37,644 nucleotides of DNA from contig JAGNEZ010000058.1 of the NCBI GenBank assembly GCA_018003015.1, forward strand, positions 1-37,644. The letters are read 5' to 3'. Shown here in pieces: positions 12,654-34,900 of this stretch. Each line of letters begins with the position of its first letter. The stretch's first letter is position 1. A program made the translations under genes and the position numbers. The stretch comes from Phycisphaerae bacterium. Its GTDB lineage: Bacteria; Planctomycetota; Phycisphaerae; UBA1845; PWPN01. Below the pieces are notes generated by a model that saw only the letters and a program-made list of their open reading frames with translations, did no database searches and was not told the DNA's origin.

Positions 12654-14759
12654 ATGGCCTTCGCAGCTTCCAGATACTCCGTTGACCGGCTTGCTCCTGA
12701 CCGCGTGCACCAAATCCTCGCACGGGTTGCGTCGGCCTACGGCCTCGCTGTCTTTCGGTCAGACCAAGGTGGCGGCAAATACCGCACGGAGTTTGTCCAA
12801 ACCAGACCGTGGTACGCCGTCCTGATCCGCCGCCGCCCCCAGCGTATAACCTGTGCGCTGAAGGCTACGGATCGCGGCACTTGCCTAGACATAGACCACC
12901 GTTTCTTCCGCTCGTACAGCATCCTGGTTTCTTGTGTGGTAGCCTTTACTGGCGGGCTATTCCTGTACGGCGCGCACGGCGTGTTCTCAGTCCCACATTT
13001 CACGTTTGCTGGCTTCAGCCATTCTCTTCTCGCCATATTCCTCGGCATCCTCTTGATGGAGAGGACTCTCTCTCTGATTCGGATGCCCGCTGGCCCCTTT
13101 CTCGATGACTTACGAGAGGAGGTCAGGCGAAGCCAGGGCTTGCTCGAAGAAGACAGAATCGGCGTACGTAGTCCCGAGTATCGCGTGCACATCGCCTTCC
13201 TCGTGTACATTTTGATACTCTTCTTGCTGGGCGCATGGGTCAGCGGTATATGGCTCGCCCGCTTGCCCGCCGCCCTCCTGGTCGTCTCCGCTACGGCGAT
13301 AGGACTGATTCTGGTACTGCTGATAATGCTCGCTGTTACGGTGTGCCGACCCCCTGCAGCCCTTCGACTGAGCATACCACTCGCTTGCCTCGGAAGTTCG
13401 ATGGTTAGCACCACACTAATCGTAGCCCTCTGTATTCCAATGGTCTTCGGCGTCCCCCGAAGAGCACTGTGGAATCAAATTCTGACAAGGAATGGCACAG
13501 TCGAACGTCTTGACCCGCGAGCATCTGCTGCACTCGGCTCTGAGAGGCCCACTGGTTCCCCAGGCGCGGAACAAATCGAGGCGAAACGGCGACTCATTGG
13601 CCTCCTTTGTCCCATCGTTCTTGCATTCGTCGTCGTCGCAGGAATTTACGCCGCAGGAACCCTCGGTAGCGTCGGGTCTGTCATAGAACACGCAAATCGA
13701 CTTCAGGCACAAATCCAAGGCAGGACGACCCATGAGGCCGTCTCAGGGGGCAGCTTCTTCCGACCAATGCGCCTGCTCTTAATCCTGGTCTGGATTTCGT
13801 TCGGTGCGCTGATCTTAACTGGTGCTGGTTGTGTGATCATGACAGGGATCGGAGTTATTGACCCCGCGCATCTGTTATTCGGTCAACAAAGCGTGGGAGT
13901 CATTGAGGGAACCGCCATGGCGCTCGCGCTTGTCCTCGGCTTACCCTCTTCTGGCCCAGGATTACTCCTCCTCAGCCGTGTGTTGTGGGCGGCGAGCGCG
14001 TTTTGTGCGCTTGGCCTATTCGCTTTATCCCTGATGAGTTACTACTGGCGCCGCTGGTTGACTTTGCGCAGGCTGCGCGCCTGCGTTTTGACCGGCGCGG
14101 GAGCACAGAAATCGGCACCCATCGAAGACATGATCTGTGACTTGGCTCGACGCGCCCGTTGCCCAACGCCGCAGCTGGCAGTAACGTCCCGATCCGATCC
14201 GTACGCAGGCGTGTACGAGTTTGGGCTTTTGAAGAGAGAGAGGTACATCGAGCTGTCAGTGCGGTTCATCGAAACACTTGAGCGGGACGAGATCGAGGCC
14301 GTGCTCGCTCACGAGCTTGGCCATTTTATGAGTGGACACTGCACAAGACACAATCTGCTGCACATTCTTGCCCGTCTGACATTCGTCGGCGGAGGGTTCG
14401 TCAGCGGGATCGAGAACAGCTTCGGAAATGAACTCGAGGCCGACCGCGTTGCCGTTTCGCTCCTGAGCGTCAGGCCGCAAGTCCTGCGCTCCTGCCTGGA
14501 GAACACCCTGGCAACCCTCGCTTTGGACTCGCTGAAAAGGCACCGCATGTCTGTAGGCTTGGCACTCGCGCAGAGCAGCGGTGCTTTGGGCAGATCGTCC
14601 GCATGGGCTCGCGGCGAAGCCAGGGAGTCCCTCTCGCTCTCCAGCCGCATTCGCCTTTGGCTGTCGATTTATGCATCGGATGTGGATGTGTTTTCGTATT
14701 GGCATCCATCGCTCAGGGAGCGCATTGAGCTACTGAAGGCGATGGAGGAGCCCCCGTGA
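12654..14759 (+). CDS. Multi-pass M48-family zinc metallopeptidase
   Basis: About 701 residues. The catalytic domain lies near the C-terminus: AHELGHFMSGH gives HELGH at residues 553-557, and ELEADRVAV about 35 residues later supplies the third zinc ligand, as in HtpX/Ste24-type M48 peptidases. It is preceded by DLARRARCPTPQLAV and YAGVYEFG, which match the usual M48 lead-in. Unlike the short HtpX (about 290 residues, typically four membrane segments), this protein has some eight or nine hydrophobic segments between residues 85 and 470, plus a soluble N-terminal 85 residues. An ATG at 12654 is chosen; an in-frame TTG at 12633 is the alternative. A soluble winged-helix gene follows after 130 bases, so membrane proteolysis linked to gene control, by analogy to BlaR1/BlaI (M56), is a hypothesis. 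Confidence 0.8.
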   Translation: MAFAASRYSVDRLAPDRVHQILARVASAYGLAVFRSDQGGGKYRTEFVQTRPWYAVLIRRRPQRITCALKATDRGTCLDIDHRFFRSYSILVSCVVAFTGGLFLYGAHGVFSVPHFTFAGFSHSLLAIFLGILLMERTLSLIRMPAGPFLDDLREEVRRSQGLLEEDRIGVRSPEYRVHIAFLVYILILFLLGAWVSGIWLARLPAALLVVSATAIGLILVLLIMLAVTVCRPPAALRLSIPLACLGSSMVSTTLIVALCIPMVFGVPRRALWNQILTRNGTVERLDPRASAALGSERPTGSPGAEQIEAKRRLIGLLCPIVLAFVVVAGIYAAGTLGSVGSVIEHANRLQAQIQGRTTHEAVSGGSFFRPMRLLLILVWISFGALILTGAGCVIMTGIGVIDPAHLLFGQQSVGVIEGTAMALALVLGLPSSGPGLLLLSRVLWAASAFCALGLFALSLMSYYWRRWLTLRRLRACVLTGAGAQKSAPIEDMICDLARRARCPTPQLAVTSRSDPYAGVYEFGLLKRERYIELSVRFIETLERDEIEAVLAHELGHFMSGHCTRHNLLHILARLTFVGGGFVSGIENSFGNELEADRVAVSLLSVRPQVLRSCLENTLATLALDSLKRHRMSVGLALAQSSGALGRSSAWARGEARESLSLSSRIRLWLSIYASDVDVFSYWHPSLRERIELLKAMEEPP

Positions 14760-25356: not shown

Positions 25357-28300
25357 CTAACCAGCGTGGGTTGTTGCTGTGACAGGCTGCGTCGCCGGCT
25401 GGGTTGTAGGGGGACTGACGAGGTTTGTCGCCGTCACGAGCAAATGGAGCAAGTACTCATTGGTGGTGCCCTGCGCGGCTGCGGCCGCCGACGTCAACGA
25501 CGCGCGCGCCTCTTCGAGCTGCCCAAGCTTGAATTGCGCCATCGCGATCCGGCACAAGGCGAACGCGTCCATCTCTCGATTCGGTTCCGTCTTGATATCG
25601 ATTGCCCGACGGCTGAGTTCAATCGATTGCTCATACCTGCCCACGTGGTAATAGGCGGCGCCGATCCTGCGCAAAATGACCGCCTTGGGGAGTGCGGACG
25701 GTGTTGACTCCGGGTTCATCGTCAGAACCTCGTCGGCATCCTCGGCAGCGGCCTGGTAACGCTCCTTCGGTTGATCGTCTCGATCGATGATCGGCTGCAA
25801 TGCGTTCATGGTGATGGCCGGCCAGTCCTGCCTGTCCGCCAGTTGAAGCATTCGCGCCCGAACCACCGAGTCCGCCTCTTCCCTTACCGCCGCAATAACT
25901 CGCGACTTGGACAACCGCTCGGCCATCAGCGAGCCGAGCACTCGCCCGGCTGTGTCGTCAATTCCCTTAATTTCGACGTCGGCGAGCCTAAGGGCGATCG
26001 CTTTTCGCAGCGGAGGGAGCGTTCGATCCTCCCGAATGGCCCGCAGCAGATCCTCCCGTGTTGTTAGCGGTTGGGAGAGCAGCGTTTTGACGTATTCACG
26101 GGCGGGTTGCGATTCTCGTGACCGCAGCCCCCAATACTCTTTGCGCGCCTCGTAACCACGCGTATCCCAGACTTCTGCGCCGCCCTCAGCGAACTTGAGA
26201 ATCAAACGGGTGCCGTCTTTGGTGAACTTCAGGCTCGTAACCCTCGATGCGACAGGAAGGATGGCCAGGTCGCGGGACGATACCGCATCCTGAAATCGTA
26301 CACAACCGTTTCCCGCGCATACTACGCGCCGGTGGTCGGGACTCACCACTGCGGCGGTGATCGCCGGGTCATGTGCCACACTGACAGTCTCGGAATCGGG
26401 CGCTGTGCTCGAAAACTCTTTGCCCGCTCCGGGGCTAGCTACTGTTTGCGTGACCAGGGTGGTCCCACTGGGAGCCACTCCACAGTCCGCGATCAGCGCA
26501 TCCACTTCCTCGTCGGGGTGCTGATCGGCCGCAAACGCAGTTACCGGTGAAGCACGGTGGCTCAGGCGGCACACCGCTATTGAAGTCTCGCGGGTTTCCG
26601 CCGTCCCCCCTCCTAGATAGCCGATGACAAAGTCGCCTGCGCTGTCCATGCTTTCGGGCAAAAACGGTCCGTAGTCCATAGGGCTCAACGAGGACAGAGG
26701 CGCCTGCCCTTCACAGCGTCCATCGAGGTCCCACAGGCAAACGCCCTGTGAGCCTTCGCCAATCATATGTCGTTCGTCTCGAGTTAAGCTGACGCCGCCG
26801 AGCGCCGAATCCAGGAATATCGGCTCCCCGACGCGCCTGCCCGCCAGGTCCCACCACTGAACAATGCCCTCTTGCGACCATGCGAGAAGGCGGCGGCTGT
26901 CCTGCGTGAAGACCTGACTCCACGTGCCGTACCGCTCCTGCATTCGCTCGCCGACAGGTGATCCCGAGAGATCGTAGAAGCAGGCTGTGTAACCAGGGCC
27001 CCGGTCCTTCCAAGCCAGCACCGACCGCCCGTCCGGAGTAAACTCGACGGATGCGGCATCTGGCATGGCCTTGCCGACGGATAGTCCGGCAGCAGTCCAG
27101 AGACGAGCTTGCTCGTTATAACTGGTGAGTATCATCTTGCCGTCCGGACTAAAGGCGGCAGTTGCGCTTGGCTCGGAGCCGTCTGCGTTCTTCGCTAGGC
27201 CCACGACCATTGGCGATCCTACGTACTTCCCCGAGAGGTCACGGATTCTGACCGAAGCAGTGTTGTTGCTGCGTTCGAGGACCAGAAAGCACTTCTCGTC
27301 CGGGCTCAATGGCTTGACCCATGGACGCCAACCTGTAGGGATGGGTGTGCTTATAGGTTTACCCTCGCGACTCCATAGTTGCGTGGATCTGGAGTTTGCG
27401 GCTCTGCCATATGCATCGATAAGAATGGAGTTGCCAGTGGGCCCGAATGTCAAATACCCACCGTGGCCGTAGTCTTGGACTTCTTCCCCATACACGATCG
27501 GCGGTCCAATAGACTTTCCATTCAGATCCCATAAGTGGGCGCGACCTTTGTCCGACCATGTTAGCAGGAGTGTTCCGTCTGGACTGAACATCGCGCCACA
27601 GTTACTGCCTTCGTGGATCCCGCTAACGGGTTCGCCGTTGGCATCCCATATCACGCACGTTCGAGTTTCGGAGTCGGAGTCTGAGTTCCATAGGGGAAAT
27701 GTGACTACGCGCTTGCCGTCGGGACTGACCCTAAACAGGTCGAACCGTTCAGGGAAGCTGTAGGCGATGCCTTGCGCTCTCTGGCTAAGAAACTGCCATT
27801 CAAAAGCCCTTTTCGAGGCCGGACAAGCGCTCAGGCTGCGACGTGCCTGGGCCCAGTTGCCGCGGTCCATGTCGGCAATCGCCAAGGCGATATTCCCGAT
27901 GTAGGCCTCCAGCTCCGCCGCATCGCGTTGTCTGTCGGCTTCGATCTTCCGAGTTTCGGCAAGCTGTTGGTTCCGTGTCGCCGTCCTTGCATTTGCATCG
28001 GCGCGGCGCCATTGCCAGGTGGTGGCGGTGAGCCCGAGTGTCAGCAACGCCACGGCCCCGGCGCCGGCGAGCACGCCGGTTCTGTGCTTCCGAGCGAATT
28101 TTCGGATTCGGTAGCCGACTGAGGGCGGCGCGGCCACCACGGGCTCATCGTTCAAGTGCCGCTCGATGTCCGCCGCCAGCGCAGTGGCCGAGTCGTAGCG
28201 GCGGCTGCGTTCCTTCTCCAACGCCTTGAGAACGATCCAATCGAGGTCGCCCTTGATCAGGCCCGAGAGCTTGGCCGGCTCAATGTGCCGGCTGGCGGCC

Positions 28301-29307
28301 AGGTTCGGGAGGATGACGCTGGTGGAGACGCGCAGGCTGGGCTTGGGCGGCTCTTCCTCGCGGATGACGCGGCAGACCTCGTCCCAGGCAGCCTTTTCGA
28401 ACCGCGCGCGCTCCAGCGGGGGTGTGCCGGTCAGCAACTCGTACAGCAGCACGCCCAGGGCGTAGATGTCGGCGCGGGTGTCGACGTCCAGGGCGTTGAT
28501 CGCCACCTGTTCGGGCGCGGTGTAGAGCGGAGTGCCGGCCATCGCGCCGAAGGCGGTGTGCAGGGTGTGCTCGGTCAGCACGCCGGCTCCGCCCAGCGCC
28601 TTGGCCAGGCCGAAGTCGATCACCTTGGGCACCGGCTGGCCGTCGTGTTCTGTCACCAGGACGTTGGTGGGCTTGATGTCGCGATGCAGGACCCCTTTCT
28701 GGTGGGCGTGCTGAACGGCGTGACAAATCTGGGTAAACACCACCAGCCGGTCCCGAATGGTCATCCGCGACTGATCGCAATACTGCATCAGCGGCAGACC
28801 GCGCACCAGTTCCATGACAAAATAGGGACGGCCTTGTTCAGTCACGCCCCCGTCGAATACACGGGCAATGTTGGGATGATCCATCAGGGCCAGCGCCTGG
28901 CGCTCGGCTTCAAAGCGGGCGATGACGGTTCGGGAGTCCATGCCCGCCTTGATCAGTTTGACCGCCACCAATCGCCGAACGGGCGACCGCTGCTCGGCCA
29001 TCCAGACAACGCCCATGCCACCGGCGCCGATTTCTTCCAGCAACTTGTATCGGCCGCCGATCACGGCGCCTGCCAGGGCTTCGGGTAGGGATGTTTTGGG
29101 AGGCGCGGTTGCGAACGTCGGCAGCGACCCTTCGGCGTCGTGGGCCGCCAGTAAGGCTTCAACGCGCTGCCGCAGGCCGGCGTCGCCGGCACACTCGCGG
29201 TCCAAAACCGCCTGCCGGTCGGTCGCGGTGGCCGCCTCGACGGCCGCCATGAACACGGCCTGTTCGCGCCGAAAGTCAGCCTGCCTTGCTTTCTCGTCAT
29301 CCGGCAT
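25357..29307 (-). CDS. Membrane Ser/Thr protein kinase with WD40-like and TPR-like extracytoplasmic regions
   Basis: ATG 29307 has CGGAG 8 bases upstream. An earlier ATG at 29343 overlaps the sigma-factor stop codon (ATGA) and is the alternative start. About 1316 residues: a short helical N-terminus, then a Hanks-type kinase domain with glycine loop GAGGMG (94-99), lysine K117 in VAVKLIKAG, HRDIKPTN, KVIDFGLAKAL and YTAPEQ, so it should be active. A single membrane segment (VLAGAGAVALLTLGLTA) follows the kinase. The outer part has repeated WD40-like units (SPDGTLLLTWSDKGRAHLWD and similar) and ends in TPR-like helices and a Thr/Pro tail. This is the planctomycete large-kinase design, probably signalling extracellular cues together with the linked ECF sigma factor. 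Confidence 0.92.
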   Translation of the reverse strand: MPDDEKARQADFRREQAVFMAAVEAATATDRQAVLDRECAGDAGLRQRVEALLAAHDAEGSLPTFATAPPKTSLPEALAGAVIGGRYKLLEEIGAGGMGVVWMAEQRSPVRRLVAVKLIKAGMDSRTVIARFEAERQALALMDHPNIARVFDGGVTEQGRPYFVMELVRGLPLMQYCDQSRMTIRDRLVVFTQICHAVQHAHQKGVLHRDIKPTNVLVTEHDGQPVPKVIDFGLAKALGGAGVLTEHTLHTAFGAMAGTPLYTAPEQVAINALDVDTRADIYALGVLLYELLTGTPPLERARFEKAAWDEVCRVIREEEPPKPSLRVSTSVILPNLAASRHIEPAKLSGLIKGDLDWIVLKALEKERSRRYDSATALAADIERHLNDEPVVAAPPSVGYRIRKFARKHRTGVLAGAGAVALLTLGLTATTWQWRRADANARTATRNQQLAETRKIEADRQRDAAELEAYIGNIALAIADMDRGNWAQARRSLSACPASKRAFEWQFLSQRAQGIAYSFPERFDLFRVSPDGKRVVTFPLWNSDSDSETRTCVIWDANGEPVSGIHEGSNCGAMFSPDGTLLLTWSDKGRAHLWDLNGKSIGPPIVYGEEVQDYGHGGYLTFGPTGNSILIDAYGRAANSRSTQLWSREGKPISTPIPTGWRPWVKPLSPDEKCFLVLERSNNTASVRIRDLSGKYVGSPMVVGLAKNADGSEPSATAAFSPDGKMILTSYNEQARLWTAAGLSVGKAMPDAASVEFTPDGRSVLAWKDRGPGYTACFYDLSGSPVGERMQERYGTWSQVFTQDSRRLLAWSQEGIVQWWDLAGRRVGEPIFLDSALGGVSLTRDERHMIGEGSQGVCLWDLDGRCEGQAPLSSLSPMDYGPFLPESMDSAGDFVIGYLGGGTAETRETSIAVCRLSHRASPVTAFAADQHPDEEVDALIADCGVAPSGTTLVTQTVASPGAGKEFSSTAPDSETVSVAHDPAITAAVVSPDHRRVVCAGNGCVRFQDAVSSRDLAILPVASRVTSLKFTKDGTRLILKFAEGGAEVWDTRGYEARKEYWGLRSRESQPAREYVKTLLSQPLTTREDLLRAIREDRTLPPLRKAIALRLADVEIKGIDDTAGRVLGSLMAERLSKSRVIAAVREEADSVVRARMLQLADRQDWPAITMNALQPIIDRDDQPKERYQAAAEDADEVLTMNPESTPSALPKAVILRRIGAAYYHVGRYEQSIELSRRAIDIKTEPNREMDAFALCRIAMAQFKLGQLEEARASLTSAAAAAQGTTNEYLLHLLVTATNLVSPPTTQPATQPVTATTHAG

Positions 29308-29339
29308 GGCCGTATCTCCGAAAGTGGTGTTCCGGAGAG

Positions 29340-29858
29340 TCATGCGTCGTCCAACGTCTGAGCTGTCGAAGAAAATTCAGCCATCGCATTTTTCAGCCAG
29401 GCCCGGGCGAACGTCCACTGTCGCCGGGCCTCGTACACGGTGATGCCCATCGTCTCGGCGACGCGTTCGTGAGACAGTCCTGCGAAGTGGTGAAGTTCGA
29501 CCACCCGGGCGGCGGAAGCATCACGACCCGCCAAGGCGTCGAGGGCGATATCCAGGGCGATCAACCGATCGTCCGTGACCGGGGCGGGAATCTCGCTTAG
29601 TTCGACGCGCACCGCACCACCCCCGCGCTTGAGCCGGCGGCGGGCTCGGGCTCCATCAATCAGAACCCGCCGCATCGCGGTCGCGGCGGCAGCGTAAAAG
29701 TGTGCCTCGTTGGCGAAGCTGTTTCCCAAGTGCAGATAGGCTTCGTGAACGAGCGCCGTGGCCGTGAGCGTGTGCTCAAGCCGTTCCCCGCGCATCAATC
29801 GTTCGGCTTGGCGCCGAAGCTGTTCGTAGAGGTCTTCTTGAAGCTTCTCTCGCCGCAT
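29340..29858 (-). CDS. ECF sigma factor of the planctomycete (TIGR02999) type
   Basis: 172 residues from ATG 29858. Region 2 includes LTATALVHEAYLHLG and the helix FYAAAATAMRRVLIDGARAR, a pattern diagnostic of the Sigma-70_X6/TIGR02999 group. Region 4 is the C-terminal VVELHHFAGLSHERVAETM and YEARRQWTFARAWLK helix-turn-helix. The stop codon overlaps a possible kinase start. Its gene order with a Ser/Thr kinase is the usual planctomycete arrangement, in which the kinase is believed to control the sigma factor. Its own promoter would lie within 29859-30050, where no consensus is evident. Confidence 0.92.
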   Translation of the reverse strand: MRREKLQEDLYEQLRRQAERLMRGERLEHTLTATALVHEAYLHLGNSFANEAHFYAAAATAMRRVLIDGARARRRLKRGGGAVRVELSEIPAPVTDDRLIALDIALDALAGRDASAARVVELHHFAGLSHERVAETMGITVYEARRQWTFARAWLKNAMAEFSSTAQTLDDA

Positions 29859-32504
29859 GGTGCCTAATCCCTAAGCCGACCCGCTCGGAAACCGTCAAAA
29901 CTGAGTGTAACCAGCGTACAGCCGAAGCTCAAGAATCAAAACAGGGACGCTTCTGACCTCATACGAGATTTCTCAGAGAACTACCGCCCGGCTACGGCGC
30001 CGTGCGATCTCCCGCTATTCTACGAGCCTCCCCCCGCTGCACATACCCTGTTTTCAGGCGTTATTAGGCGTTTCGGCCCGCGCGGAGCAGTGTCCGAGCC
30101 GCCCAAACAGCTGCAGCATGGCGGGCTCAGCGACTTGATGCTGTTGCTGCTGGCCCAAGGGCCATCCCGTGGCTGTGAGAGTGCCAGGAGGCCACGACCG
30201 GGTGGAGCGTGGGTGTATCCTGGCCGCGCCCGTTGCGGGCGGCTGGCGCGGCTGGTGGTGTAGGTTTAGCGCGGGCTGGGCAACTGCGAGACTGCCGAAA
30301 CGCAAGCGGCCCGGCGGTGAGGGAAGGGTCGCGTGAAAGGCCAAGACGCAGATATCAGGACGACGTGGTCGGCCGTGGGAGCGATGGTGTCTGGGTTGAC
30401 GATGACACGTGGAAGCGCGGGGAAGCGATTGGGAGATGGCTGTAATTTCGGCTGGACGCTGGGCGGGTAGCGGCCTGCTGACGTGTGGTGTTGCCATTGG
30501 GCAAGCCAAAGCCCAGGGGGATGAGGGTAAATGGCGACGAGGGCGCTGGTGATCATGCCAAGGACGGTGCCGACTACGGAAGCATGACTGTGAGGTCGAC
30601 GCTGACAGCAACGAGGACGACGAGGCCCGGAGGAGGGTCAGGGCAGTGCTTTTGATGACGGTGTGCGGAGAACTGCGACGGTCATGACGAGGGGAGCGAC
30701 GAGCGGGAGGGCGGTGAGGGTGATCGGAACCAAGGTAACGACGGTGATGACGGTGGCCAGGCTGGCGGCAATAAGGGCTATGAACGTATTGACTGCGGAG
30801 AAGGCGTTCGTGAACACAGGCGGTACGTTGAGGAGAGCATGGCGGTGCGTGGCGACGGCGATGATCGCAGGAACGGGCATGAGATCGAAGTGGTTGCATG
30901 GCCGGTGGGCGTGGATCTGCGGATGGAACGCGGTTGATGCTGATCGAGCGATATCGAGGTTCTGAGTGATATGCGGGAAAGCTGATGACGCGGGTGGCGG
31001 TGATTGGCTCGGAGTGTAGACATGGATGATGAGGTCTGTGAGCGAGGCAAGTGGAGCATAAAGGTCGGTGGCGGAGTAGCTTGTGCTGTATGACGACGAT
31101 GGCTGGTGGTGTGCGGCTGATGGTGGCGTCGGGGATGCAGAAATGGTGAACGGAGATGACGGGCAGGATGGTGGTGGTAGGTGCAGACGCGGACGGTGGC
31201 GGTGGCGTGGTTACGCGGTAGGACCGTAGGGGAACGAGAAGATTGCGGTCTAAGGAAAGATGGCAGCGGAGCGAAGGGCATGGGTTTGGGGAGATGCCGT
31301 AGCGTGGCGGGCAGAGCATGAGAAGAGGTCAGGGAGTTGGTGGAACTGATGACGAGAGTGCGCAAGGGCGAGAACCAGCAGAGTGGTCGAGAGCAGGTGA
31401 GTTGAACGGGTGAGTGTGTTCGTGGCAGGTGGTGATCGTGGCTTGAGGGGAAGATACTATTGGAAGGTGCAGGCGGGAGCGGAGTGGTGATCGGTTGGGA
31501 GTCGATGATGAGCGAGGGCCATGATGTAATCGGCTGACGCCGAAATAGGAGCTGCTGCGGCAGCTCAGTTGACACGGCGGGCCGCCGTTGTGGGCGGCTG
31601 CGGCCCGCGGCGAATTCGCGGGGAGACTGGTGGTCGGTGTGGCGGTGCGATAGAGCGGAGAGAGGACACGGGTTGGCGGGGCTTCTAGCGATGAGCGGAG
31701 GGTAGGAAATGAAAGCGTTGCGGACTAGGGGAGGTGGCTGTGCGATGGGCGGCAGGATGCGCAGGACAGGCTGTCCCGGGGTACATGCGGGAGTTGTGGC
31801 GGGACGTTACCGGGCGGTGAGCGGGGCTTTTCGCGGGAGGGAAAGCCGGAGGATCAGGGGCTTTAAGATGAGTGGGATGTAGATGAGAGGGGCCTATGGG
31901 GAACCCTTCAGAGGGTTGAAGACGGGATTCACGGCTGGATGACTTAAGTGCTTTTAGCAATTAGTTTTAAGTCGGATTGAGGAGAGGAGAGAGGAGATAC
32001 CAGCAACTAGGAAGTCAGAATCAGAAACCAGAACGCTCCGCAGCCGGCTTTGGCGGGCCGATCCCGCAGCACGGCGACACGGCTGATCCCCAGGCACGAC
32101 ATGCATTGACCGGCAATCTTCCCACGACGGCACCCATGCCGAAGCGCAAAACGCCGGCGCAACGCGCGCCCACGGCCGCCAGATGTCTCCCGGTCCGCGG
32201 CTTCATCCGCACCGTTCCCGTGCGTGATAGGACGGGCTGGTTGACCACTTTTGAGGTGGCTTACGTCCCGTATGCTCGCGATCATGGCAACATGCACCGA
32301 TGAGCCAGGGGAGACGCGGGGGCTGCCTTGTCCCGACATGAAGGAGAGGAAGTGGTGTCGAGCCAGAACGCAGGGCAAGGGATTCCTCAGAACTTCGGTA
32401 GACGCCTCCTCGACCGCGACAAGATCGACCGGATAGGCTGGCCTGAGCTCAGCTCACCCGGTCGCGTTTGTGGCCCACAGCATTCTGGAACCAGCGTCCA
32501 TCCG
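29859..32504. other. 2.6-kb stretch without a convincing gene
   Basis: Contains the strongly G-skewed block described separately (about 30130-31930), a T/A-rich segment at 31940-31990 and some 500 bases of ordinary composition (31990-32504). Open frames in the last part are short or lack start signals; one (ATG 32136, MPKRKTPAQRAPTAARC) is the best of them but is not supported by any family. Such a long gene-free interval is unusual for a bacterium. Confidence 0.5.
30130..31930. other. Gene-free block with extreme G-over-C strand asymmetry
   Basis: On the plus strand G exceeds C about three to one throughout. Sampled 60-base lines give 30 G to 10 C (31261), 32 to 10 (30661), 33 to 8 (31621) and 26 to 8 (31201). 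The plus strand is rich in purines as well, and stop codons are frequent on it. The minus-strand frames that stay open (421 and 265 codons, overlapping in different phases) translate to Pro/His/Arg/Ser/Thr-rich nonsense because C-rich sequence avoids stop codons. No RNA family or tandem repeat is recognised. A local stem GGGCCGC/GCGGCCC (31579-31585 with 31600-31606) is the only clear hairpin seen. Confidence 0.6.
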
Positions 32505-33305
32505 TCAGAACGGTATCCAGTTCAGGGGCGTATCATCCCACGTCTCACCATCGAGCAGACGGCCGCCCTTGGCGGTTCCACCATTCTGCTTGGCGGTCGG
32601 ATCAGCACCATTGGGGTTATTGCGGACGTGACCCCATTGCTTGAAGAAAAACGGGATCCGGGCACGAACACACTGTTCCTGAATGCTTGTGACCCACCCA
32701 TGCGCCATCGGTCGGGCGCCAGGACCGGATTCGCCGCCCACGATCACCCAGTTGATGCCCCGTAGGTTCAGACTCGGAATCGGCCCGAGGAGGGGCTCGA
32801 GGGAAAGGAACTTGACCCAGGCGCCTGTGGCTCGAAGCTCGTCGATACGGAAGGTGGACTCGGCGTTCTCGACGCTGACGCCCATCCACACGTTCTCCGG
32901 CCAAGGCAACCTGGGCGACAGCTCAAGCAGGCGCTGCGATCGCTTGGTCAGCACCTGGAAAGTGTGCTGCGGACAGTCGGCCATGACGGCGAACACGCGG
33001 ACAATGAACTCGACCGGGACAGCCTCGTGGAACAGATCGCTCATGGAGTTGACGAAGATGGTCCGTGACTCCAACCACCGCCGAGGCTGATCCAGAGCCT
33101 TTTCGTCGAGCACGATCTTCCCGGTCCAGCGGAGCCGCCCACCCTCCGTGGTGGTCGTTCCCTGATATTTGGGCTGGCCCATGGCATGGAGCCGGTGGGC
33201 CATGGGGAGCGCATAGCAATGCGCACATCCGGGACTGCACATCGTACAACCAGCGCACGGGTTCCAGGTCAGTTCGGTCCACTCAATCGTCGAAGTCTGA
33301 GCCAT
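32505..33305 (-). CDS. DUF5131 / phage Gp37-Gp68-family protein
   Basis: ATG 33305 is preceded by AGGAGGT with 7 bases of spacing. The 266-residue protein starts TIEWTELTWNPCAGC and continues with the cysteine cluster TMCSPGCAHCYA, then TIFVNSMSDLFHEAV, LTKRSQRLLEL, WMGVSVENAEST, FLSLEPLLGPI, VIVGGESGPGARPM and PFFFKQWG. These are the diagnostic blocks of the Gp37/Gp68 (DUF5131) family, which has radical-SAM-like cysteines and is found on phages and integrated elements, often near three-Cys-motif partner genes. The enzymatic reaction is not established. No partner of the three-Cys-motif type is visible beside it here. Confidence 0.88.
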   Translation of the reverse strand: MAQTSTIEWTELTWNPCAGCTMCSPGCAHCYALPMAHRLHAMGQPKYQGTTTTEGGRLRWTGKIVLDEKALDQPRRWLESRTIFVNSMSDLFHEAVPVEFIVRVFAVMADCPQHTFQVLTKRSQRLLELSPRLPWPENVWMGVSVENAESTFRIDELRATGAWVKFLSLEPLLGPIPSLNLRGINWVIVGGESGPGARPMAHGWVTSIQEQCVRARIPFFFKQWGHVRNNPNGADPTAKQNGGTAKGGRLLDGETWDDTPLNWIPF

Positions 33306-33387
33306 GTTCGGCACCTCCTATCAGTAAACCTGTTCCGCTGAACTGACGATGAACGTCCTGGCAGCAACGAGCCCTGCCGGCGTCTCG

Positions 33388-34165: not shown

Positions 34166-34900
34166 TCATATCCGCCTGTAAACACCGCAATTCGCGGGGT
34201 TCTTTGTTTCTCCGTTTTTGTCCTGCGGGGTGTTTCGTCCGTCTGGGTGTAGTTGCTGTGCCGGATTCTGTGCCGCGCTGCCTGTAACCCCGTCGCCCCG
34301 GATAGCCGCCTCGAAGTGGGCATCCATGGTCATCAAGTAATGCCTCATCGTGATCTTCGGGGTGTTGCCCATCCAGTCGGTCAGGACCTGGGCGGGAAAA
34401 CGCTCGACCCACTCGGTTTCGAGGCTTGCACGCATGTTGTGGAAGGGGCGGGGCCAGATAGTCAGTCCGGCCCGGCGAACGATCTTGGCGAAGGTCGTTC
34501 GCGGGTTGCTGTTCGCCCAGCCAGCCGCCCCCGCTGCCGCTCGGCGGAATCGTTGATCGACTACATATACATCGCCCTCTGAGGCGAGCTCGAACGAATC
34601 GAGCAGTATGTCCCGCAGTTCAGGGAACATCGGAATGACGCGAGTCGCCCGGTCAGGGAGGTGTTCGGTTTTCGGGCTGGTTACGCGAATCCGGCCGCGA
34701 TCCCAATCAACGTCGTCCCATCGCAGACTCAGAACCTCGCTTGGGCATCGTAGTCCTCCGTACCTGCGCAAGCCAACGATGGTTCGCCAGTGGTGATCCG
34801 GACAGGCGGCCAGCACTCGGGCGGTTTCCTCCCGTGTGACGAATTTCTGCCGAGCCTTTATCCCGGCCAGCCAAAAAGCTCCCTGAAATCGGCGTAGCAC
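34166..34900 (-). pseudogene. Truncated tyrosine recombinase (integrase)
   Basis: 244 codons that hold the catalytic domain only. Seen are the first arginine block GLRRYGGLRCPSE, the lysine strand TSPKTEH, the H-x-x-R block FHNMRAS, the tryptophan block TDWMGNTP and the tyrosine HYLM. The sequence matches a planctomycete integrase type I know as 'VTREDAAKVLEACP...RYGGLRCPSE' of about 380 residues. The N-terminal core-binding domain is missing: homology starts near KARQKFVTREE (about base 34860), exactly where the end of the adjacent CxxC gene begins. The open frame's first residues (MLRRFQGAFWLAG) come from the CxxC gene read in another phase. The protein is probably inactive. Confidence 0.8.

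What the first reader, a model, noticed from the sequence alone, without database searches (positions are those of the whole stretch)
30130..31930. 1.8-kb gene-free block with G about three times C on one strand
The asymmetry is sustained, starts and ends within about 100 bases, and does not follow codon structure. Coding, ordinary spacer or replication-strand bias do not explain it. It could be a long G-rich RNA or R-loop-forming region, a decayed skewed repeat, or a target or spacer of an unknown system.
Basis: seen in the sequence. Interest (0 to 1): 0.6.

Follow-up and report, generated by a model that had tools for sequence, protein, structure and literature searches.

The report
Strand-skewed 1.8-kb gene-free spacer
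A 1.8-kb stretch between two bacterial genes really does carry 2.5 times more G than C on one strand, far beyond anything else sampled from this genome; it is the host's own DNA, has no recognisable gene family, repeat or RNA fold, and may at most act as an oversized stop zone for transcription on the opposite, C-rich strand.

Summary
The maximal G-over-C segment is 30169-31996 (807 G, 320 C, 376 A, 325 T; GC skew 0.43). Its 1-kb skew reaches 0.49; the largest in 1.6 Mb sampled from the same genome is 0.33. G+C content and strand-symmetrised dinucleotide signature are the host's, so it is native DNA. It has no relatives (114 genomes of the order, phages, plasmids, Pfam, NCBIfam, PHROGs, Rfam), no repeats, no quadruplex motif (GGG runs are depleted) and no RNA fold beyond chance. 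Most other skewed spacers here have G>C with T>A; this one does not, so ordinary strand-mutation bias fits poorly. Both neighbours read on the minus strand, whose RNA would be C-rich, G-poor and weakly folded for 1.94 kb: the signature of Rho-loading C>G bubbles, nearly twice as long as any other sampled. A Rho-type transcription stop between DUF5131 and the ECF-sigma/kinase operon is my best guess (about 0.3), untested; gene ends genome-wide do not show it. Real, odd, apparently lineage-specific spacer.

The parts
30169..31996 (.). The skewed block: G 44%, C 17.5%, A 20.6%, T 17.8% on the + strand
30665..30934 (-). Island with codon-type signal inside the block; minus strand scores 22.4, plus strand 18.3, so the strand is not settled
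30638..30880 (-). 80-aa hydrophobic ORF with ATG start, in phase with the island; no relatives found; existence as a gene unproven
31549..31608 (.). Two GC-rich hairpins in the middle of the block (31549-31566 and 31577-31608), locally more stable than shuffles (z -2.3 for 31500-31640; the spot was chosen by eye)
31941..31973 (.). AT-rich inverted repeat GACTTAA...TTAAGTC just inside the sharp right edge
   Evidence: seen directly; folds it
29964..30055 (-). Diverged copy of a dispersed promoter-like element (GGGGGGAG, GTACAAT-like box, hairpin) in front of the ECF sigma gene; not part of the block. 29985-30055 is the matched part, the end towards 29964 is read from the alignment
29340..29858 (-). 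ECF sigma factor (PF07638), next gene after the block on the minus strand
25357..29343 (-). Serine/threonine kinase with WD40 and TPR repeats, behind the ECF sigma gene
32505..33314 (-). DUF5131 (PF07505) gene, reads towards the block, ends about 500 bases before it

Best explanation
The block is a lineage-specific, mostly non-coding spacer made of the host's own DNA. Shown: its composition is that of the host except for a strong G/C strand asymmetry, and it lies between two genes that both read on the minus strand. Inferred: minus-strand transcripts that run on from DUF5131, or start inside the spacer, are untranslated, C-rich, G-poor and weakly folded over 1.9 kb; Rho loads on such C>G bubbles and ends them before they reach the promoter of the ECF-sigma/kinase operon. 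The C-rich sense strand would be kept by selection for termination, or merely tolerated.
For: Native dinucleotide signature. Unbroken C>G bubble on the minus strand, 30123-32063, 1.94 kb at C > 1.2 G, against at most 1.12 kb in 1.6 Mb; rut-like C spacing 266 per kb against 20 on average and 0 on the plus strand. The minus-strand RNA of the right half folds at -178 kcal/mol against -320 for the plus strand. Rho is encoded. No hairpin terminator found between the two genes. C>G bubbles characterise rut sites, and their length or area correlates moderately with Rho binding and ATPase rate (PMC9160355).
Against: Bubble length and rut-like density restate the skew and are not independent evidence. 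1.9 kb is far more than termination needs. Sense-strand DNA after 208 gene ends of this genome shows no C>G excess, and other skewed spacers lie in either orientation relative to their genes. No relative exists in which conservation could be tested. No RNA data.
Confidence: 0.3

Rival explanations
1. Spacer without function whose asymmetry arose by a strand-specific mutation process (for example long exposure of one strand as single-stranded DNA).
For: No conservation, no structure, no relatives. Spacers of this genome are somewhat skewed in general and follow regional skew, r 0.62.
Against: Deamination-type bias gives G>C together with T>A, as in most skewed spacers here; in the block A slightly exceeds T and G+C is unchanged. 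It would need C-to-G-type change or a mixture. The surrounding contig is unskewed.
Confidence: 0.25
2. Orphan or decayed coding DNA on the minus strand: an unusual C-rich, G-poor gene with a hydrophobic core at 30638-30880, of which most has lost its frame.
For: Codon-type signal at 30665-30934, above all surrogates; ATG at the edge of the phased stretch; minus frames open over long distances.
Against: Open frames are expected from the composition (P 0.07-0.13). Outside the island phase is weak or absent, and substitutions enough to erase it should have erased the skew as well. No protein relative. Plus-strand score is nearly as high.
Confidence: 0.2
3. A long G-rich RNA or R-loop-forming region transcribed from the + strand.
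For: G clusters and purine excess (65%) on the + strand over 1.8 kb; such asymmetry favours RNA:DNA hybrids (general knowledge).
Against: No sigma-70-type promoter found, no fold beyond shuffles, no Rfam match, no three-tetrad quadruplex motif and depleted GGG runs, no conservation.
Confidence: 0.12
4. Assembly or binning artefact.
For: Metagenome-type assembly in 144 contigs, 3.4% estimated contamination; the block has no relative anywhere searched.
Against: Host-like G+C and strand-symmetrised dinucleotide signature; no long G runs of the kind left by sequencing artefacts.
Confidence: 0.06

Closest known systems
Rho utilisation (rut) region with C>G bubble
   Same: RNA of the genes' own strand is C-rich, G-poor, weakly folded, with spaced C; lies after a gene on the same strand
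   Different: 1.94 kb long, nearly twice the longest in the host sample; no termination data; gene ends of this genome do not show the pattern in general
Replication-strand or deamination GC skew
   Same: Sustained excess of G over C on one strand
   Different: Confined to 1.8 kb in an unskewed contig, far stronger, and without the T-over-A that mostly goes with it in this genome
Skewed intergenic stretch of Belliella pelovolcani (L177, about 1000-1800)
   Same: Non-coding, |GC skew| about 0.5, A about equal to T
   Different: Unrelated in sequence, lower G+C, opposite orientation to its neighbours

Membership tests
Rho-dependent terminator (rut region) | C>G bubble on the RNA strand of the upstream gene | tested here: met
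Rho-dependent terminator (rut region) | Weakly folded RNA on that strand | tested here: met
   energy close to shuffles and far weaker than the other strand; follows from composition
Rho-dependent terminator (rut region) | Host encodes Rho | tested here: met
Rho-dependent terminator (rut region) | Transcript ends that depend on Rho | not testable with these tools
   needs RNA data or an assay
G-quadruplex region | Four runs of three or more G within short loops | tested here: not met
   none; GGG runs 63 against 87 expected
Structured non-coding RNA | Fold more stable than shuffles, or match to a known family | tested here: not met
   covariation could not be tested, no relatives
Decayed repeat array | Self-similarity or cryptic simplicity above composition-matched surrogates | tested here: not met
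Protein-coding gene | Codon periodicity through the open frame | tested here: inconclusive
   met only at 30665-30934, strand not settled
Protein-coding gene | Relatives in other genomes or a known family | tested here: not met
Replication or deamination skew | G>C together with T>A and with the regional skew | tested here: not met

The most novel reading that the evidence does not exclude
A new kind of long, unfolded, strand-polarised spacer: kilobase-size DNA kept G-rich on one strand and C-rich on the other by selection, working as a transcription insulator through Rho or as an R-loop region, with independent examples such as the one in Belliella.
Probability: 0.1. Interest if true: 0.65.

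Novelty: new variant of a known kind. Interest (0 to 1): 0.3.

Why it matters
If selection keeps kilobase spacers this polarised, transcription insulation in some bacteria may rely on extended Rho-loading DNA rather than hairpins, and skew alone could flag such sites in any genome. If it is neutral, it points to a strand-specific C-to-G type process that the usual deamination model of GC skew does not give.

Tried and rejected
Part of a DUF5131 system: not supported; none of the other DUF5131 loci of the order has such a block within 1.5 kb, and of 80 loci elsewhere only L177 has a non-coding one of similar strength, about 3 kb away on the other side. Body of the dispersed element at 29964-30055: rejected, the other copies with enough flank are followed by DNA without the skew. 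Foreign DNA: signature is the host's. Quadruplex, structured RNA, repeat array, replication skew: see membership test. Phage or plasmid origin: no DNA match. Short DNA matches near 31576-31618 looked like chance matches. Orthologous empty site: not found; the best ECF-sigma match in the sister species is 48% identical and DUF5131 is absent there. AlphaFold of the 80-aa ORF from a single sequence gives one long helix, which does not decide whether it is a protein. Literature searches gave nothing on such spacers or on DUF5131.

Full report
WHAT IS THERE. Skew profiles confirm the block. A maximum-scoring segment of G over C runs from 30169 to 31996: 807 G, 320 C, 376 A, 325 T. The ratio is 2.5 to 1 overall and up to 4.8 to 1 in single 100-base bins. 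G+C (61.7%) is close to the host's. The right edge is sharp (31989-32037), the left gradual (30157-30322). The window is the whole of contig C58 of a 6.86-Mb, 144-contig genome, 98.7% complete. A genome of the same order (G016) has a contig of the same length, with a DUF5131 gene at a matching place, as a public Phycisphaerae MAG contig, so the host is most likely a planctomycete of or near Phycisphaerae (inference).

HOW UNUSUAL. In 1.6 Mb of the same genome no 1-kb window exceeds |0.33|; the block reaches 0.49. The best other segment scores 50 against 105. Among 68 gaps of 600 bases or more between predicted genes in 2.0 Mb (own genome, sister species and window) this one is first; the median |skew| is 0.09. 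Over 3.4 Mb of all DNA fetched, the only other non-coding stretch of comparable size and strength is in Belliella pelovolcani, L177 about 1000-1800, also with A about equal to T; single 600-base windows at |0.33| to |0.39| occur in the own genome and in Algoriphagus.

WHAT IT IS NOT. No DNA relative in 114 genomes of the order beyond short, weak matches, apart from the dispersed element left of the block; none in phages or plasmids. The main frames match no Pfam, NCBIfam or PHROGs family with significance. No Rfam family, even at E 1. Folding z-scores are 0.2, 0.3 and -0.55 for the halves and strands tested; two GC hairpins at 31549-31608 are locally better than shuffles (z -2.3), at a spot chosen by eye. 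GGG runs are depleted, 63 against 87, and no three-tetrad quadruplex motif exists. Gapped self-comparison and cryptic simplicity do not exceed surrogates. Long open minus-strand frames (421 and 265 aa) are largely a by-product of G-poor composition (P 0.07-0.13).

A CODON-TYPE ISLAND. The statement that there is no codon structure fails at one place. At 30640-30879 the bases at coordinates divisible by 3 are 82-95% purine; purine 3-periodicity over 30550-31000 has z 11.6; a codon score trained on the host gives 22.4 on the minus strand and 18.3 on the plus strand, the former above 300 of 300 surrogates of each Markov order. A phase model marks 30671-30882, which matches an ATG-started 80-aa hydrophobic minus-strand ORF (30638-30880). 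It has no relatives in 81 genomes of the order or in viral contigs; single-sequence AlphaFold gives one long helix, which proves little. The island is real as a statistical signal; whether it is a small gene or a relic is open. The rest of the block has weak or no phase.

NATIVE DNA WITH AN ODD ASYMMETRY. With both strands pooled, the dinucleotide signature is that of the host: distance 0.066, the 65th percentile of host pieces, against 0.169 for the shuffled block. So recent foreign or artificial sequence is unlikely. Most other skewed spacers of this genome have G>C together with T>A, and spacer skew follows regional skew; the block has A slightly over T and sits in an unskewed contig. Deamination-type strand bias is therefore a poor fit.

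MECHANISM. Both neighbours read on the minus strand: DUF5131 ends at 32505 and points into the block; the ECF sigma starts at 29858, with its kinase behind it, after a promoter-like element at 29964-30055. The minus-strand RNA would be 44% C and 17.5% G, an unbroken C>G bubble of 1.94 kb against at most 1.12 kb elsewhere in the sample, with rut-like C spacing 13 times the genome average. Rho is encoded, and no hairpin terminator is predicted between the genes. C>G bubbles characterise rut sites, and their length or area correlates moderately with Rho binding and ATPase rate (PMC9160355). A transcription stop by Rho is thus the best available function. It is inference: bubble length and rut-like density restate the skew, the size is far beyond need, and gene ends in this genome show no general C>G rise. 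I give it 0.3.

VERDICT. A real, exceptional, native and apparently lineage-specific spacer with a small codon-type island inside; the mechanism is unproven. A second, unrelated example in a small sample makes a wider scan worthwhile.

Noticed in passing
window 29964-30055 (minus strand); L107 1480-1722; L115, L117, L118, L266, L276, L282, L285: Dispersed element of up to about 245 bp with promoter-like boxes, a GCCCGGCGGCGTAGCCGGGC hairpin and a constant end AAATGTCGG followed by variable DNA: 10 copies in the own genome, 23 in the sister species, 22 and 7 in two others of the family; several copies stand directly before genes with signal-peptide-like starts, one before the ECF sigma gene here. 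No Rfam match.
   Followed up: partly
L078 14731-14872, L066 11040-11052, L056 318-518, L062 19593-19693, L065 13229-13485 (own genome): Short motif GGCTTCGTTTGGC repeated in this genome (19 exact copies in 12 of the loci then fetched), in spacers where looked at, sometimes three or four in a row; absent from the window.
   Followed up: no
L177 900-1800 (Belliella pelovolcani): Non-coding C-rich stretch, GC skew to -0.63, A about equal to T, about 3 kb upstream of a DUF5131 gene; the only comparable block in 3.4 Mb.
   Followed up: partly
L146 12396-13460 (sister species G001): About 1 kb spacer with C over G (skew -0.2 to -0.4), sharp end near 13400, before a gene whose product ends like a PEP-CTERM protein.
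   Followed up: no
L242 and L243 (own genome, C50 and C19): Two Rho-type proteins: one over the curated cut-off (655 bits), one clear relative below it (461 bits).
   Followed up: no
window 34166-34900 (minus strand): Phage-type tyrosine integrase, apparently lacking its N-terminal part, upstream of DUF5131.
   Followed up: no
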